Source: an uncultured Gammaproteobacteria bacterium (GTDB lineage: Bacteria > Pseudomonadota > Gammaproteobacteria > Pseudomonadales > UBA5518). From it: 36,881 nt of DNA. The stretch covers positions 1 through 36,881 of the forward strand of contig CAIYPF010000006.1 in the NCBI GenBank assembly GCA_903928015.1, given 5' to 3'. The notes below the pieces were generated by a model that saw only the letters and a program-made list of their open reading frames with translations, searched no databases and was not told the origin of the DNA. Positions 13,284 to 17,316 of this stretch are shown one piece after another. Position 1 is the first letter of the stretch. The number at the start of each line of letters is the position of its first letter. Made by a program: the position numbers and the translations under genes.

Positions 13284-13748
13284 TCACTTGGGCGGCGGCG
13301 CCACCGGCTCGAGTTTGCCGTCGCCGGGCTTGCCGCCGATCTGTTCCGGCGCCACCCACGGTTCGAAGTAACCCAGGCCGCAACCCGCCCCCGCGCCGAT
13401 ATTGGTGATCACGGTGATCACATCGGTGTTGCAGAGTTGGTTCAGGCTGGTTTTGTAGGCGAAGCGTTTCTCGAAGGCGAGCCCGGGGCATTTGCGCGGC
13501 AGGCGGTTGGCGAGCGTCTTCTTGCCGCCCATCTCGAAGAGGATTGTCTGTGCATCCAGCACCCGTGTGCTGCGGATCTGGGACAGGTTCACGCAGCGCT
13601 GGGCGCCTTCGGGCAGCGTGCTTTCCTTTTTTTCCGTGTTTTCGGTTGCCTGCGCTGCAGTGGCTGGGGGCTCGGCTGCACGCGCGAGTGGCAGCGCCAT
13701 TCCGAAAGACACGACTGCAGCCAGACCAAGGGCGACGGGGCGTTTCAT
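13284..13748 (-). CDS. Small secreted four-cysteine protein (DUF6491-like)
   Basis: The 154-residue product has a Sec signal peptide ('VALGLAAVVSFGMALPLARA', residues 5-24), a charged linker, and a compact domain beginning 'RCVNLSQIRSTRVLDAQTILFEM' and running through 'RLPRKCPGL' and 'TSLNQLCNTDVITV'. The four mature cysteines (52, 87, 106, 123) could form two periplasmic disulfides. The domain resembles a family I know as DUF6491, whose function is unknown. The tail is Gly/Pro/Lys rich. ATG 13748 follows a good GGAGGT site; a longer in-frame extension overlaps the ligase gene and is not used. It lies 35 bp after the RimK-like ligase gene in the same direction and may be the last gene of that operon. 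Confidence 0.75.
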   Translation of the reverse strand: MKRPVALGLAAVVSFGMALPLARAAEPPATAAQATENTEKKESTLPEGAQRCVNLSQIRSTRVLDAQTILFEMGGKKTLANRLPRKCPGLAFEKRFAYKTSLNQLCNTDVITVITNIGAGAGCGLGYFEPWVAPEQIGGKPGDGKLEPVAPPPK

Positions 13749-13783
13749 CGGGAGTACCTCCAGGGAGGTGTGGGTGTACAGCT

Positions 13784-14752
13784 TCAGACAGCGGCGGGCG
13801 GGGAGGGTTCCGAGCGGAACTCGCGCATGCTGTAGGCCACACGTTCCTCGACGCTGCGCGAGACCTGCTTCGATTCCCGGGCAATTGCGCGGATCCGCGG
13901 TGACAGCCCCGTATTGTTGGCGATCTGGATCGAGAGCCCGGGGCGTGCGTTCAGCTCCATGATGAGCGGCCCGCGATGCTGGTCGATCACGATGTCCGCG
14001 CCCAGATAACCGAGCCCCGTGATCTCGTAGCAACTCGCGGCAAGGCACATCAGCTGGTGCCAGTGCGGGATGGCAAGCGTGTTCAGGGGCAGCCCGGTGT
14101 CGGGGTGCAGCTTGCAGGGCCGGTTGTACTGCACGGCGAAGAGCGCCTTGCCGGTGCCGAGGTCGAGGCCCACGCCCACCGCGCCCTGGTGCAGGTTTGC
14201 CTTGCCGTCCGAGACGTGCGTGGCGAGACGCATCATCGACATCACCGGGTAGCCGCAGAACACGATGATGCGGATGTCAGGGATGCCCTCGTAGCTCAGG
14301 CCCTCGAACTGCGGGTCCATCGCGACCAGCGCCTCGATCATGGCCACGTCCGGCTTGCCGCCCAGGCTGTAGAGGCCGCTCAGGATGTTCGAGATGTGGC
14401 GCGTGATGTCGAGGGGCGTGACCTCGTCTCCGCTCGCCTTTACCCAGTTCTCGCCCCGGCGGCCCACGATCACCTTGATGCCTTTGCCGCCGCTGCCGCG
14501 GCTGGGCTTGATGACAAAGCTGTCGAGTTGTTCGAGGGTCTTGCCGATGACCTCGACCTGGTGCTGCTCGCGAACCACGTTGTAGAGCTTGGCCACGGCA
14601 AGGCCGTGCTTCTCGGCCAGCATCTTGGTCTTCAGTTTGTCGTCGACCAGCGGATAGAGCCGGCGCTGGTTGTAGCGGGCAATGAAGGTGTTGCGCTCGT
14701 TCATGCCGAGCAGGCCGGTCTCCCGTAGCCGGAGCGGATTGGCCAGAAACAC
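13784..14752 (-). CDS. RimK-like ATP-grasp ligase (alpha-L-glutamate ligase homologue)
   Basis: The 322-residue protein is an ATP-grasp carboxylate-amine ligase of the RimK-related group (TIGR02291-like). Visible are 'YNQRRLYPLVDDKLKTK' near the N-terminus, the ATP-binding Lys82 and glycine loop 'KPSRGSGGKG' (82-91), 'IPDIRIIVFCGYPV', and the metal-binding end 'LIMELNARPGLS' with Glu266 and Asn268. RimK-type enzymes add amino acids such as glutamate to a carboxyl group of a protein or peptide; the acceptor here is unknown. The start is GTG 14752, one base after the TGA of the 7TM gene, which implies translational coupling; the N-terminus fits family members from that codon. No signal peptide, so it acts on the cytoplasmic face of the membrane. 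Confidence 0.9.
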   Translation of the reverse strand: MFLANPLRLRETGLLGMNERNTFIARYNQRRLYPLVDDKLKTKMLAEKHGLAVAKLYNVVREQHQVEVIGKTLEQLDSFVIKPSRGSGGKGIKVIVGRRGENWVKASGDEVTPLDITRHISNILSGLYSLGGKPDVAMIEALVAMDPQFEGLSYEGIPDIRIIVFCGYPVMSMMRLATHVSDGKANLHQGAVGVGLDLGTGKALFAVQYNRPCKLHPDTGLPLNTLAIPHWHQLMCLAASCYEITGLGYLGADIVIDQHRGPLIMELNARPGLSIQIANNTGLSPRIRAIARESKQVSRSVEERVAYSMREFRSEPSPPAAV

Positions 14753-14753
14753 C

Positions 14754-16286
14754 TCAGCGGTTCTCCAGCATCGGGCGGAAGCGGCGCAACTCCATCAGGC
14801 GGTAGCCGGTGTACTGGCCGATCAGCAGGATAACCGCCAGTTGCACCATCAGGAGTTCGGGGAAATTGAACGTGAGGTGCGCCACCAGCGAGTTGCTCAT
14901 CATGAGGAACGCCGCCGTTGCCACCAACAGGCTGCCACCACCCTGGATCGCCACCTCGCGCGGGCCTTCTTCTTCCCAGAGCACCGACATGCGCTCGATG
15001 GTCCAGGACAGGATGATCATGGGGAAGAAGGTCACGGTGAGAATCTGGTAGAGCCCCAGCTTGAAGCTGAGAATGCTGATGCCGGACATCAGCCCGATCA
15101 CCACCGTCACCACGGCGGATATACGTCCCAGCATCAATAAATTGAGCCTTGCCAGGTGGAAGCGGATGTACAGCCCCGCACCCACCACGATCAGGAACAG
15201 CAACAGGCCCCACAGCAGCGTGGTCTGGATGAAGGCCAGCGCGATCAGGATGGGCATGAAGGTGCCGGAGGTGCGCAGGCCGATCAGGATGCGGAAGATC
15301 GCCACCACCAGCGTGCCGATGGGCACCAGCAGTATGGTCTTGAAGGCGGCCTGTTCTTCGGCGGGCAGGGCGTAGATCGAGAAATCGACCAGCGCCGCGC
15401 GGTTGTCGGTGGCAGTGTCCAGCGCGATGTCACGCGTGGGCCGATAGGTCTTCACGATCGAGAAGGTGGCCTTGGAGTCGAAGCCGCCTTCGACGTCGAG
15501 CAGCGATACGTCGCCGCGGCGCCACACCATGAACTGCGCTGGCAGCCCCGGGCTCGCGCTGCGCGGGTCGAAGATCTTCCAGCGTCCGTCGTCCCAGACC
15601 TCGACCAGATCGATCAGGTTCTGGCGACGGCGCCCGTCCTCCAGCACCAGTCCGCGCACGATGCGGTTGGGGATGCCTGCGAGCGAGAGCAGTTGCAGGG
15701 CCGTGTTCGCCACGTGGACCTGGCTGTGGTTTTCGCCCAGCAGGAAGGCCGCGTTCTGCGACAGCGGGTTGCCGATCAGGGCGCTCAGCAGTTGGGTGAC
15801 GAAGGTCTCGGTGTTGGCCGAGACGGCGTGGATCTCGTCGAGCAATGCCGATGCCGATGCCGCCTGCGCGCTGTCGTATTCGGGGGGAACCGGCGGCGTC
15901 GGCTCACCTGCCTCTGCCTTCTGGTCCAGGGTCGCGGGATAGACCTGGATGCGGTAGTAGAGCGTCTGCTTGCCGTCTGCTTCACGGCGCGTCCACTGTG
16001 CGCGGCGGCTGCCATCGGGCTGTTTTATCTGCGAGAAACCGTAACCCGGAGTTGTGAAATTCTCGTTGAGTATCGCCACTCCGCCCTGCTCGTAGGGCAG
16101 CGAGAGCGACACCAGCACAGGCACGCCGCTCGCCTGGAATTCCACCTTTGATTCGATGGTCCAGACCTCTGTCTTGGCGTCGGGCAGCAGCGGAAAGCCG
16201 AGTGCGAAGTGCTTGTACAGCGCGATGCTGATCCCGATTACCGCCAGCAGGGCGGCAACCACGTACACCTTGATCTTTTCTTCCAT
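14754..16286 (-). CDS. Inactive transglutaminase fused to seven membrane helices
   Basis: The 510-residue product has one N-terminal membrane helix (about 8-27), a periplasmic segment containing a transglutaminase-like fold (about 165-260: 'ANTALQLLSLAGIPNRIVRGL', 'DLVEVWDDGRWKIFDPRS'), and a cluster of hydrophobic helices from about residue 310 to the C-terminus. In active transglutaminases the signature is a Cys then His before 'W.EV'; neither is present, although the Asp of 'FDPRS' remains, so it is probably a binding rather than catalytic domain. This matches the known 'inactive transglutaminase with 7TM' family (PF14400/PF14402-like), always found with RimK-like ligases. It probably binds a peptide outside the membrane and couples it to the ligase inside; that is inference. 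Confidence 0.88.
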   Translation of the reverse strand: MEEKIKVYVVAALLAVIGISIALYKHFALGFPLLPDAKTEVWTIESKVEFQASGVPVLVSLSLPYEQGGVAILNENFTTPGYGFSQIKQPDGSRRAQWTRREADGKQTLYYRIQVYPATLDQKAEAGEPTPPVPPEYDSAQAASASALLDEIHAVSANTETFVTQLLSALIGNPLSQNAAFLLGENHSQVHVANTALQLLSLAGIPNRIVRGLVLEDGRRRQNLIDLVEVWDDGRWKIFDPRSASPGLPAQFMVWRRGDVSLLDVEGGFDSKATFSIVKTYRPTRDIALDTATDNRAALVDFSIYALPAEEQAAFKTILLVPIGTLVVAIFRILIGLRTSGTFMPILIALAFIQTTLLWGLLLFLIVVGAGLYIRFHLARLNLLMLGRISAVVTVVIGLMSGISILSFKLGLYQILTVTFFPMIILSWTIERMSVLWEEEGPREVAIQGGGSLLVATAAFLMMSNSLVAHLTFNFPELLMVQLAVILLIGQYTGYRLMELRRFRPMLENR

Positions 16287-16317
16287 GGCGGGCTGGTCTG
16301 TTCGTGGGGTGTGGGGG

Positions 16318-17010
16318 TCAGGGGCGGGCGGGTGCCGGTACCGTAAAGCGGCGGCTCACGTCCACCACTGCCTGGTCGCGCAGGAAGTCGCGGCCGAGGA
16401 TCACGGGGTGACCCTTGCCGGCGCGGTCGGCGAGAGAGAATTCCGTGTACTGGTCGATCTCGCCCAGATGTATGTGCAGCGAGACCACGTAGCGCTTGGC
16501 GCTGCTGCCTTTGACCGCGGAGGAGCGAAGCACGGGGCGGGACACCTCGGTGGCCTTGCCCCCGGCCGGATCGACCAGGCTGAACTTCACCCAGGTTTTG
16601 CCGTCGCGCTCGAACTCGCGTGTGTTGCGGGCGTCGATGGTGGAGCCGGTGGCGCCGGTGTCGAGTCGCGCTTCCAGAACCAGGGACGGCGGATCCACCA
16701 GCACGCGCTCGACCTCGCCCAGTACCGGCATGGGTGTGACCGGACGGGCGCGCTCCACGGGGGCGGGCCTGGGCGGTGGGGGCGGGCATGCAGCGGTTGC
16801 CGGTGCCGGCGGCGCTGCCGGAGTTTCAACTGCAGGCGGTGCGGGCGGCGCCGGCACGGGTTCCGGGGCAGGCTCCGGTGCCGCAGCGGGCGCCGCTGGC
16901 GTCTGGGCGGGCGTTTGCTCGGGGGCTGCGCCACCGGGCGTGGATTGGCAGCCTGCGACGGCCAGCAGGACGCCGAGGAGGGCGGGCGCGAGAAAGGCTC
17001 TGGAGCTCAT
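16318..17010 (-). CDS. Aspartyl-protease-like lipoprotein (RimB/ATP-dependent zinc protease family)
   Basis: The 230-residue product begins with a lipoprotein signal ('LGVLLAVAGC', Cys21), then about 65 residues of Ala/Pro-rich linker, then a domain with 'LEARLDTGATGSTIDA' (Asp117-Thr-Gly-Ala). The DTGA motif is that of retropepsin-like aspartyl proteases; the family (PF05618) is annotated 'ATP-dependent zinc protease' but neither a zinc nor an ATP motif is visible. A second conserved block is 'HPVILGRDFLRDQAVVDVS'. It would sit in the envelope, anchored by lipid. ATG 17010 is chosen because it follows GAGG and begins the signal peptide; an ATG at 17049 would add residues upstream of it. It is the first gene of the operon with the 7TM protein and ATP-grasp ligase. 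Confidence 0.87.
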   Translation of the reverse strand: MSSRAFLAPALLGVLLAVAGCQSTPGGAAPEQTPAQTPAAPAAAPEPAPEPVPAPPAPPAVETPAAPPAPATAACPPPPPRPAPVERARPVTPMPVLGEVERVLVDPPSLVLEARLDTGATGSTIDARNTREFERDGKTWVKFSLVDPAGGKATEVSRPVLRSSAVKGSSAKRYVVSLHIHLGEIDQYTEFSLADRAGKGHPVILGRDFLRDQAVVDVSRRFTVPAPARP

Positions 17011-17049: not shown

Positions 17050-17078
17050 ACTATAGAGCCGGGACCGGGGTGCGGCAA
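17050..17078 (-). promoter_or_regulatory. Sigma70 promoter of the protease/7TM/ligase operon
   Basis: On the minus strand TTGCCG (17078-17073) and TATAGT (17055-17050) are separated by exactly 17 bp. The transcript would begin near 17043 with a leader of about 33 nt before ATG 17010. Position and spacing are both ideal. Confidence 0.7.
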
Positions 17079-17100: not shown

Positions 17101-17316
17101 TCAGTGCACGGTCCGTGCGGCGGCCTCGAGTTCGGCCAGTTCCAGTTCCTCGGGTTCCAGCGCTACGCTCGAGCCCTGGTAGACGTCGAAGTGCTCGTCG
17201 AGGTAATCGCGCAGTTCGCCGACCACAGCGGTCATCGCATCGATGGCCTGGCTGATGTGCTCCAGCGTGGAGAGAATCGATTCCGGGTCCATCGGGCGAT
17301 TTTTCCGGCCGCTCAT
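17101..17316 (-). CDS. Small acidic protein of unknown function
   Basis: I do not recognise this 71-residue product. It has a short basic start ('MSGRKNRPM'), an amphipathic helix '[32 protein letters not shown]' region that could form a coiled coil or helical pair, and an acidic tail rich in Glu/Leu/Ala ('[15 protein letters not shown]'). There are no cysteines or membrane segments. ATG 17316 is preceded by GGAGACGCCCC; a second ATG lies at 17292. The gene is divergent from glpK and ends just before the promoter of the protease/7TM/ligase operon, in the same direction, so readthrough into that operon is possible. Coding potential is supported by the start signal and the plausible helix, not by homology. 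Confidence 0.5.

What the first reader, a model, noticed from the sequence alone, without database searches (positions are those of the whole stretch)
13284..17010. ATP-grasp ligase / 7TM transglutaminase / DTGA protease operon with its own promoter
Lipoprotein protease, inactive transglutaminase with seven helices and RimK-like ligase are a recurring trio proposed in comparative work on ATP-grasp and amidoligase operons to tag or process envelope peptides, but its substrate is not established to my knowledge. Here a small secreted four-cysteine protein follows it and may be a partner or target.
Basis: partly seen in the sequence, partly recalled or inferred. Interest (0 to 1): 0.7.

Follow-up and report, generated by a model that had tools for sequence, protein, structure and literature searches.

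The report
Make-and-cut operon for envelope polyglutamate
This stretch is a known three-gene bacterial cell-envelope operon (rloABC) with one extra gene that, in the genomes examined, sits beside it only in this genus; the operon likely builds an acidic peptide inside the cell, would pass it across the inner membrane, and is predicted to trim it on the other side, and comparison with relatives points to a possible secretion-machine origin that can be tested.

Summary
In detail: 13284-17010 (minus strand) encodes a DTGA lipoprotein protease, a seven-helix protein with a transglutaminase domain lacking catalytic Cys and His, an ATP-grasp ligase, and a small secreted four-Cys protein. The trio is the rlo operon, characterised in Pseudomonas aeruginosa in 2025: RloA cuts polyglutamate in vitro, and loss of RloB or RloC rescues loss of RloA. 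The fourth-gene idea fails outside the genus: adjacent in 5 of 5 same-genus genomes with RloB, in 0 of 10 other genomes of the order that carry both. Three points go beyond the 2025 paper. RloA here is a predicted lipoprotein with a Pro/Ala-rich linker and no disulfide cysteines, the commoner form in this order. Relatives fuse transglutaminase, seven-helix and ATP-grasp parts. In 16 loci of that kind (fused or split) Cys and His are kept, no RloA-like gene lies nearby, and a TPR protein and a barrel-like protein usually follow, as in polymer export; 89 of 93 dead-transglutaminase loci have an RloA-like gene nearby. That contrast is one evolutionary split, so suggestive only. The product of RloC is inferred.

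The parts
16318..17010 (-). rloA: retropepsin-like aspartic peptidase, predicted lipoprotein (230 aa)
   Evidence: PF05618 96.6 bits; sequence matches to solved chains 9g58, 9g59 and 2pma (that 9g58 and 9g59 are the RloA structures of PMC12239564 is my inference)
16948..17010 (-). signal peptide with lipobox LLAVAGC; Cys21 is followed by Gln (no Asp at +2)
   Evidence: sequence; pattern plus hydrophobicity rule; no dedicated signal-peptide predictor was run
16726..16947 (-). Pro/Ala-rich linker of about 74 residues between lipid anchor and protease domain
16339..16725 (-). protease domain; Asp117, Arg115, Arg173, Arg196 sit at the published D48, K46, R114, R137 positions (placed by motif spacing and alignment); no Cys
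16651..16662 (-). DTGA active-site motif
   Evidence: sequence
14754..16286 (-). rloB: one helix, transglutaminase-like domain without catalytic Cys/His (predicted periplasmic), then seven-helix domain (510 aa)
   Evidence: PF14400, PF14402; triad columns Q/I/D
15732..16217 (-). Transglut_i_TM match within rloB
14769..15506 (-). 7TM_transglut match within rloB
13784..14752 (-). rloC: ATP-grasp ligase (322 aa); K82, D253, D257, E266, N268, R270 kept in 76 of 76 orthologues
   Evidence: PF14397, TIGR02291; conservation
13284..13748 (-). small secreted four-Cys protein, DUF6491-like (154 aa), linked to rlo in this genus only among the genomes examined
17050..17078 (-). sigma-70-like promoter match, unproven
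17101..17316 (-). conserved 71-aa ORF upstream and co-directional, function unknown
   Evidence: 84.5% identical in two other genus members

Best explanation
The locus is an rloABC operon with one genus-specific extra gene, in which RloC is predicted to join glutamates (or similar acidic residues) into a peptide in the cytoplasm, RloB would carry or present that peptide at the periplasmic face through its seven-helix part and its dead, probably peptide-binding transglutaminase domain, and RloA, likely tethered to the outer membrane, would cut the peptide down. Shown in P. aeruginosa by others: RloA cuts runs of 8 or more glutamates in vitro, and deleting rloB or rloC suppresses loss of the RloA proteases. 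Shown here: the gene order, the loss of Cys/His in RloB, conserved basic residues in RloA, a lipobox pattern and long linker, fusion of the RloB-like and RloC-like parts in relatives, and relatives with a live Cys/His transglutaminase, no RloA-like gene nearby, and TPR and barrel-like proteins next to them. Inferred: that RloC and RloB form one synthesis and transfer unit, that the product is acidic, that excess product in the periplasm is what harms cells lacking RloA in low-salt medium, and that the aspartic peptidase does a job done by the Cys/His domain in the relatives. The small four-Cys protein is most likely a lineage-specific passenger or accessory, not a core part.
Against: No product of RloC or RloB has been measured in what I read. 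RloC carries NLHQG in 76 of 76 orthologues, whereas three RimK proteins (confirmed by NF007764) carry NLHRG, so the ligated residue may not be glutamate. No solved relative of RloC was found by sequence. The live/dead contrast is one change on the tree with one independent pair, so it is untestable here. Four of 93 dead-transglutaminase loci have no RloA-like gene nearby (L196, L199, L200, L214); their genomes have PF05618 genes elsewhere, in G047 only one, of 155 aa. In L219 the nearby gene looks like cytoplasmic RimB. 7 of the 16 live-transglutaminase genomes do have PF05618 genes elsewhere. The barrel assignment passes a Pfam cut-off in only 2 of 13. The hydrophobicity scan finds 7, not 8, helices in RloB, and the seven-helix part has no match among the listed structures. 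NCBI's strict RloB and RloA3 name models are not reached (363 of 900; 90 of 210 bits).
Confidence: 0.48

Rival explanations
1. RloC/RloB add glutamates to an envelope protein or to a periplasm-facing peptide, and RloA removes them, as RimK and RimB do on ribosomal protein S6 in the cytoplasm (reversible tagging, no free polymer).
For: RloA also cuts a run of glutamates placed on a protein; the RloC-type domain resembles RimK in fold; three type III loci hold RimK together with an RloA- or RimB-like gene.
Against: No acceptor gene recurs beside rloABC: the largest neighbour clusters outside the trio have 12, 11 and 10 members over 81 regions. The related live-transglutaminase loci carry TPR and barrel-like genes, which fits export of a product better than tagging.
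Confidence: 0.27
2. RloBC modify peptidoglycan stem peptides or regulate cell-wall enzymes, and RloA counteracts this.
For: Cell-shape, ampicillin and low-salt phenotypes in P. aeruginosa and the authors' own suggestion; D-Ala-D-Ala ligases are among the fold matches of the ATP-grasp part and one relative joins the seven-helix domain to a Ddl-like domain (L149).
Against: RloA needs runs of at least 8 glutamates in vitro, which peptidoglycan stems lack (established knowledge).
Confidence: 0.15
3. The small four-Cys DUF6491-like protein is the dedicated partner or target of the trio.
For: Adjacent, co-directional and 35 bp behind rloC here; adjacent in 5 of 5 genus members with RloB.
Against: 0 of 10 other genomes of the order with both have them together; 98 of 113 genomes with RloB have no match to the small protein; 76 of 80 contig loci carry the small gene without rlo nearby.
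Confidence: 0.06

Closest known systems
rloABC operon of Pseudomonas aeruginosa (PMC12239564)
   Same: Gene order, domain content, DTGA motif, basic residues at the published substrate positions, dead transglutaminase fused to seven helices, ATP-grasp ligase
   Different: RloA here is a predicted lipoprotein with a linker of about 74 residues and no Cys in the protease domain; one PF05618 gene was found in this genome, where P. aeruginosa has three RloA proteases and RimB; a genus-specific fourth gene follows
RimK/RimB system (cytoplasmic S6 polyglutamylation)
   Same: ATP-grasp ligase paired with a retropepsin-like protease
   Different: RloA is predicted to be exported; RloB has no Rim counterpart; RloC has NLHQG where three RimK proteins seen here have NLHRG
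Synthase-dependent polymer export (alginate, PNAG, cellulose; recalled, not tested)
   Same: The live-transglutaminase relatives have a membrane unit, a TPR protein and a barrel-like exported protein
   Different: A peptide-ligase domain takes the place of a glycosyltransferase; no TPR gene sits beside the window's trio, and the only barrel nearby is a TonB receptor beyond a hydrolase gene
DUF6491 (PF20101)
   Same: Homologues of the small protein carry this Pfam label (for example P0028, P0030)
   Different: The window's own copy scores below the family cut-off (17.8 of 27.5 bits)

Membership tests
rloABC operon (as in P. aeruginosa) | Gene order A-B-C on one strand | tested here: met
rloABC operon (as in P. 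aeruginosa) | RloA: exported DTG(A) aspartic protease with conserved basic substrate residues | tested here: met
   export judged from sequence only
rloABC operon (as in P. aeruginosa) | RloB: transglutaminase domain without catalytic residues, fused to seven helices | tested here: met
   the scan picks 7 of the 8 expected helices
rloABC operon (as in P. aeruginosa) | RloC: ATP-grasp ligase (PF14397/TIGR02291) | tested here: met
rloABC operon (as in P. aeruginosa) | Cleavage of polyglutamate and low-salt phenotype | not testable with these tools
   needs protein or mutants
RloA with disulfide (a described property of periplasmic RloA, not a defining feature of the operon) | Cys pair in protease domain | tested here: not met
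   no Cys in the domain; fewer than two Cys in 62 of 73 RloA of this order
NCBIfam NF052267 (RloB) and NF052264 (RloA3) | Score above the curated cut-off | tested here: not met
   363 of 900 and 90 of 210 bits; I therefore call these rlo-type homologues, not NCBI-named RloB or RloA3
RimK/RimB system | Cytoplasmic protease beside a RimK-family ligase | tested here: not met
   RloA has a signal peptide and lipobox by sequence; RloC passes TIGR02291, not the RimK family model TIGR00768 (38.9 of 143.4 bits)
DUF6491 (PF20101) | Score above the gathering cut-off | tested here: inconclusive
   17.8 of 27.5 bits, but homologues at 55-66% identity carry the label

The most novel reading that the evidence does not exclude
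The rlo operon is the peptidase-equipped branch of a wider family of trans-envelope machines that make and move a non-ribosomal peptide polymer: the ancestral form is a transglutaminase/seven-helix/ATP-grasp synthase with a TPR protein and an outer-membrane barrel that secretes the polymer, and rlo dropped the exit parts, lost the catalytic Cys/His and took on an aspartic peptidase to clear the polymer in the periplasm.
Probability: 0.3. Interest if true: 0.85.

Novelty: new variant of a known kind. Interest (0 to 1): 0.55.

Why it matters
Rlo proteins govern low-salt survival, biofilm formation, cell shape and antibiotic tolerance in P. aeruginosa (PMC12239564), but what RloB and RloC make is unknown. 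The fused and TPR/barrel-linked relatives give that question a direct handle: purify one chain that holds all three domains, or look for a secreted peptide polymer in a strain that carries the barrel-linked version. If the bold reading is right, Gram-negative bacteria would have a peptide counterpart of exopolysaccharide export, and rlo would be its periplasmic offshoot.

Tried and rejected

Correction made on re-checking: my first RloA model had been built from an alignment that included three non-RloA genes (L196, L199, L200), so it found L199 and L200 by construction; the model was rebuilt without them and the count fell from 75 to 73 of 76. The tree was labelled before that correction; its live/dead labels are unaffected.

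Not in print, as far as searched: fusions, TPR/barrel neighbourhood, lipoprotein form of RloA. Searches: and a term search within PMC12239564. Iyer et al. 2009 (PMC3268129) is not held and was not read, so an earlier description there cannot be excluded.

Rows dropped before counts: of 80 regions fetched plus the window (81), L129 (contig ends inside rloB), L146-L148 (fusions) and L149 (Ddl fusion) were set aside, leaving 76. The 80 regions are a chosen part of the matches, not all of them; likewise 15 regions and 17. L267 and L268 (no transglutaminase domain; an RloA-like gene near L267 only) were counted in neither class. In L211 the rloB-like gene reads in two frames.

Full report
WHAT IS THERE. 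On the minus strand of 13284-17010 lie four co-directional genes. Pfam and NCBIfam identify the first three in reading order as a PF05618 retropepsin-like protease (96.6 bits), a protein joining an inactive transglutaminase domain to seven helices (PF14400, 165.6; PF14402, 337.8), and an ATP-grasp ligase (PF14397, 301.3; TIGR02291, 429.1 against a cut-off of 314.2). The fourth gene encodes 154 residues with a signal peptide (by eye) and four Cys; PF20101 (DUF6491) reaches 17.8 bits against a cut-off of 27.5. Neighbours are a metallo-hydrolase and a TonB receptor on one side, and a 71-aa ORF and glycerol kinase on the other.

IT IS AN rlo OPERON. The trio matches rloA-rloB-rloC, described in P. 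aeruginosa in 2025 (PMC12239564; I read the abstract, sections 5, 7, 8, 11 and 12 and passages). There, RloA cuts runs of 8 or more glutamates in vitro; a triple protease mutant fails to grow without salt, is more antibiotic-sensitive and misshapen; and removal of rloB or rloC rescues the growth defect fully and the others partly. The authors name no in-vivo substrate. In Shewanella, disruption of an inactive-transglutaminase gene raises vesicle production (PMC12096838, passages). Transposon hits in PA1766 (ATP-grasp), PA1767 (membrane protein) and PA1768 (export signal) appear in a suppressor-screen table (PMC7314104, one passage); that these are rloC, rloB and rloA is my inference from the annotations. 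NCBI's strict name models for RloB and RloA3 are not reached by the window's proteins, so I use rlo-type in the broad sense.

THE WINDOW'S VARIANT. Against solved chains and the orthologues of the order, Asp117 is the catalytic residue, and Arg115, Arg173 and Arg196 sit at the published K46, R114 and R137 positions (placed by motif spacing). In 73 RloA of the order: Asp 73, Arg173 71, Arg196 70, Arg or Lys at 115 in 67. The window's protein has a lipobox, Gln after the Cys, a Pro/Ala-rich linker of about 74 residues, and no Cys in the protease domain. By a simple pattern and hydrophobicity rule, 54 of the 73 are predicted lipoproteins, 53 of them with fewer than two Cys in the domain; 10 have no lipobox and two Cys; 9 have neither, and some of these 9 show a lipobox-like Cys that the rule missed. 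The paper says the Cys pair is conserved in periplasmic orthologues; in this order it is the minority form (11 of 73). One PF05618 gene was found in the window's genome (97.2% complete), so no redundancy of the P. aeruginosa kind was seen.

THE FOURTH GENE. A family alignment of the small protein (34 rows) was searched in the same 194 genomes of the order as RloB. RloB was found in 113, the small protein in 24. They are adjacent in G000, G008, G051, G113 and G140, that is 5 of 5 genus members with RloB; the sixth genus member, G164 (88% complete), shows no RloB and only a weak match to the small protein. In the 10 other genomes with both (G003, G031, G040, G047, G077, G107, G114, G123, G159, G191) they lie on different contigs or more than 200 kb apart; 98 of 113 genomes with RloB have no small-protein match. 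In named genome contigs the tool confirmed 162 stretches and kept 80 loci; 4 of 80 have rlo genes within the fetched flanks (L006, L007, L008, L012) and 76 of 80 do not, mostly titled as Sphingomonadales relatives. The contigs of those 4 have the lengths of G113, G140, G008 and G051, so they are not further evidence. The predicted fold gave no convincing match. I conclude that it is a lineage-specific neighbour.

RELATIVES THAT EXPLAIN MORE. In three genomes of the order sample and one of the class sample, PF14402 lies in one chain of 812-838 residues: a transglutaminase core (PF01841), the seven-helix domain and the RloC-type ATP-grasp domain. A database search with one of them returned 346 proteins, and all 120 that are listed carry these three domains. 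Cys and His are invariant in 68 of 68 aligned; the third triad residue is Asp in 33 and Gly in 35. Twelve further loci carry the same parts as separate genes (L207-L213, L262-L266; Pfam on L213). Altogether 16 live-transglutaminase loci: Cys and His intact in 16 of 16, RloA-like sequence in 0 of 16 fetched regions of 3.6-12 kb. TPR domains are confirmed next door in 14 of 16 by Pfam; L147 was not scanned and L263 not tested. A barrel-like exported protein was read in 13 of 16 (not found in L147, L206, L263); each of the 13 is related by BLAST to at least 5 of the others. A Pfam outer-membrane barrel model passes its cut-off in L146 (PF14905, PF13505) and L209 (PF11854); in the other 11 no barrel model passes. 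Of the 16 genomes, 9 have no PF05618 gene at all and 7 have one or two elsewhere, in three of them beside a second, dead-transglutaminase locus.

DEAD TRANSGLUTAMINASE AND ASPARTIC PEPTIDASE. In the 76 rlo loci of the order the Cys column holds no Cys and the His column no His; the window has Gln and Ile. An RloA-like gene lies directly upstream of rloB in 73 of 76. Ten further rlo loci in other classes have lost Cys and have RloA directly upstream in 10 of 10. Seven more distant loci without an RloC-type neighbour (L214-L220) have lost Cys in 7 of 7 (His kept in L217); an RloA-like gene lies in the fetched region in 6 of 7, never in the rlo arrangement: four within 150 bp, one at 4.8 kb, one at 2.1 kb; the last (L219) looks like cytoplasmic RimB and L216 shows no signal peptide. 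So an RloA-like gene is near in 89 of 93 dead-transglutaminase loci. The four exceptions are L196 (G043), L199 (G047), L200 (G003) and L214 (G247); all four genomes have PF05618 genes elsewhere. On a tree of the seven-helix domain each type forms one side of a branch (type I support only 42) and live/dead changes once, so this is one evolutionary event and cannot be tested statistically; several long branches make the tree uncertain.

HOW IT LIKELY WORKS. The published genetics (a harmful state without RloA that needs RloB and RloC) says that RloB and RloC make or place something that RloA removes. Fusion of the parts in relatives says they work as a unit (inference). One helix plus seven would put the transglutaminase domain in the periplasm and the ATP-grasp domain in the cytoplasm; my hydrophobicity scan of the window's RloB picks out 7 segments, one short of 8. 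The ATP-grasp part of the fusion model is closest to ArgX, LysX, RimK and cyanophycin synthetase among the listed rows, enzymes that add amino acids to carboxyl groups (established knowledge). Against polyglutamate as the certain product: RloC has NLHQG in 76 of 76 where three RimK proteins have NLHRG, and no product has been measured. An acidic polymer trapped in the periplasm would draw in water in low-salt medium, which would fit the low-salt lethality without RloA; this last step is my own inference.

STATUS. Shown by others: RloA activity and genetics. Shown here: anatomy, conservation, fusions, neighbourhoods. Inferred: product, transfer, tether, origin from an export machine. The trio itself is known; the lipoprotein form, the fourth gene and the live-transglutaminase relatives are additions for which I found no print account in the searches listed under Tried and rejected; Iyer et al. 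2009 could not be read.

Noticed in passing
L146, L147, L148, L206: Single chains of live transglutaminase, seven helices and RloC-type ATP-grasp; a TPR protein follows in L146, L148 and L206 and a barrel-like protein in L146 and L148
   Followed up: yes
L149:4122-5951: Seven-helix domain joined to a Ddl-like ATP-grasp domain, next to an HlyD-like membrane fusion protein
   Followed up: partly
L267, L268: Seven-helix proteins of about 380 residues without a transglutaminase domain, with an RloC-type ligase match in the same region
   Followed up: no
L218, L219, L220: RimK (above the NF007764 cut-off) and an RloA- or RimB-like protease in the same region as a dead-transglutaminase seven-helix gene, an arrangement between the Rim and Rlo systems
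   Followed up: partly
L199, L200: rloBC without rloA upstream; a different gene of about 170 residues takes its place in both, in two genomes of one genus
   Followed up: partly
L131, L133, L159, L161, L164, L172: RloA reading frames of 336-397 residues, longer than usual; possible extra C-terminal part
   Followed up: no
L008: Record titled Klebsiella pneumoniae MAG; its contig has the length and genes of G008 of the window's genus, so the title looks wrong
   Followed up: no
window 13756-13769: Perfect inverted repeat ACCTCC-2 nt-GGAGGT that contains the likely ribosome-binding site of the small four-Cys gene
   Followed up: no
window 17101-17316: Conserved 71-aa ORF upstream of rloA, same strand, 84.5% identical in two genus members; may share the transcript
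   Followed up: partly
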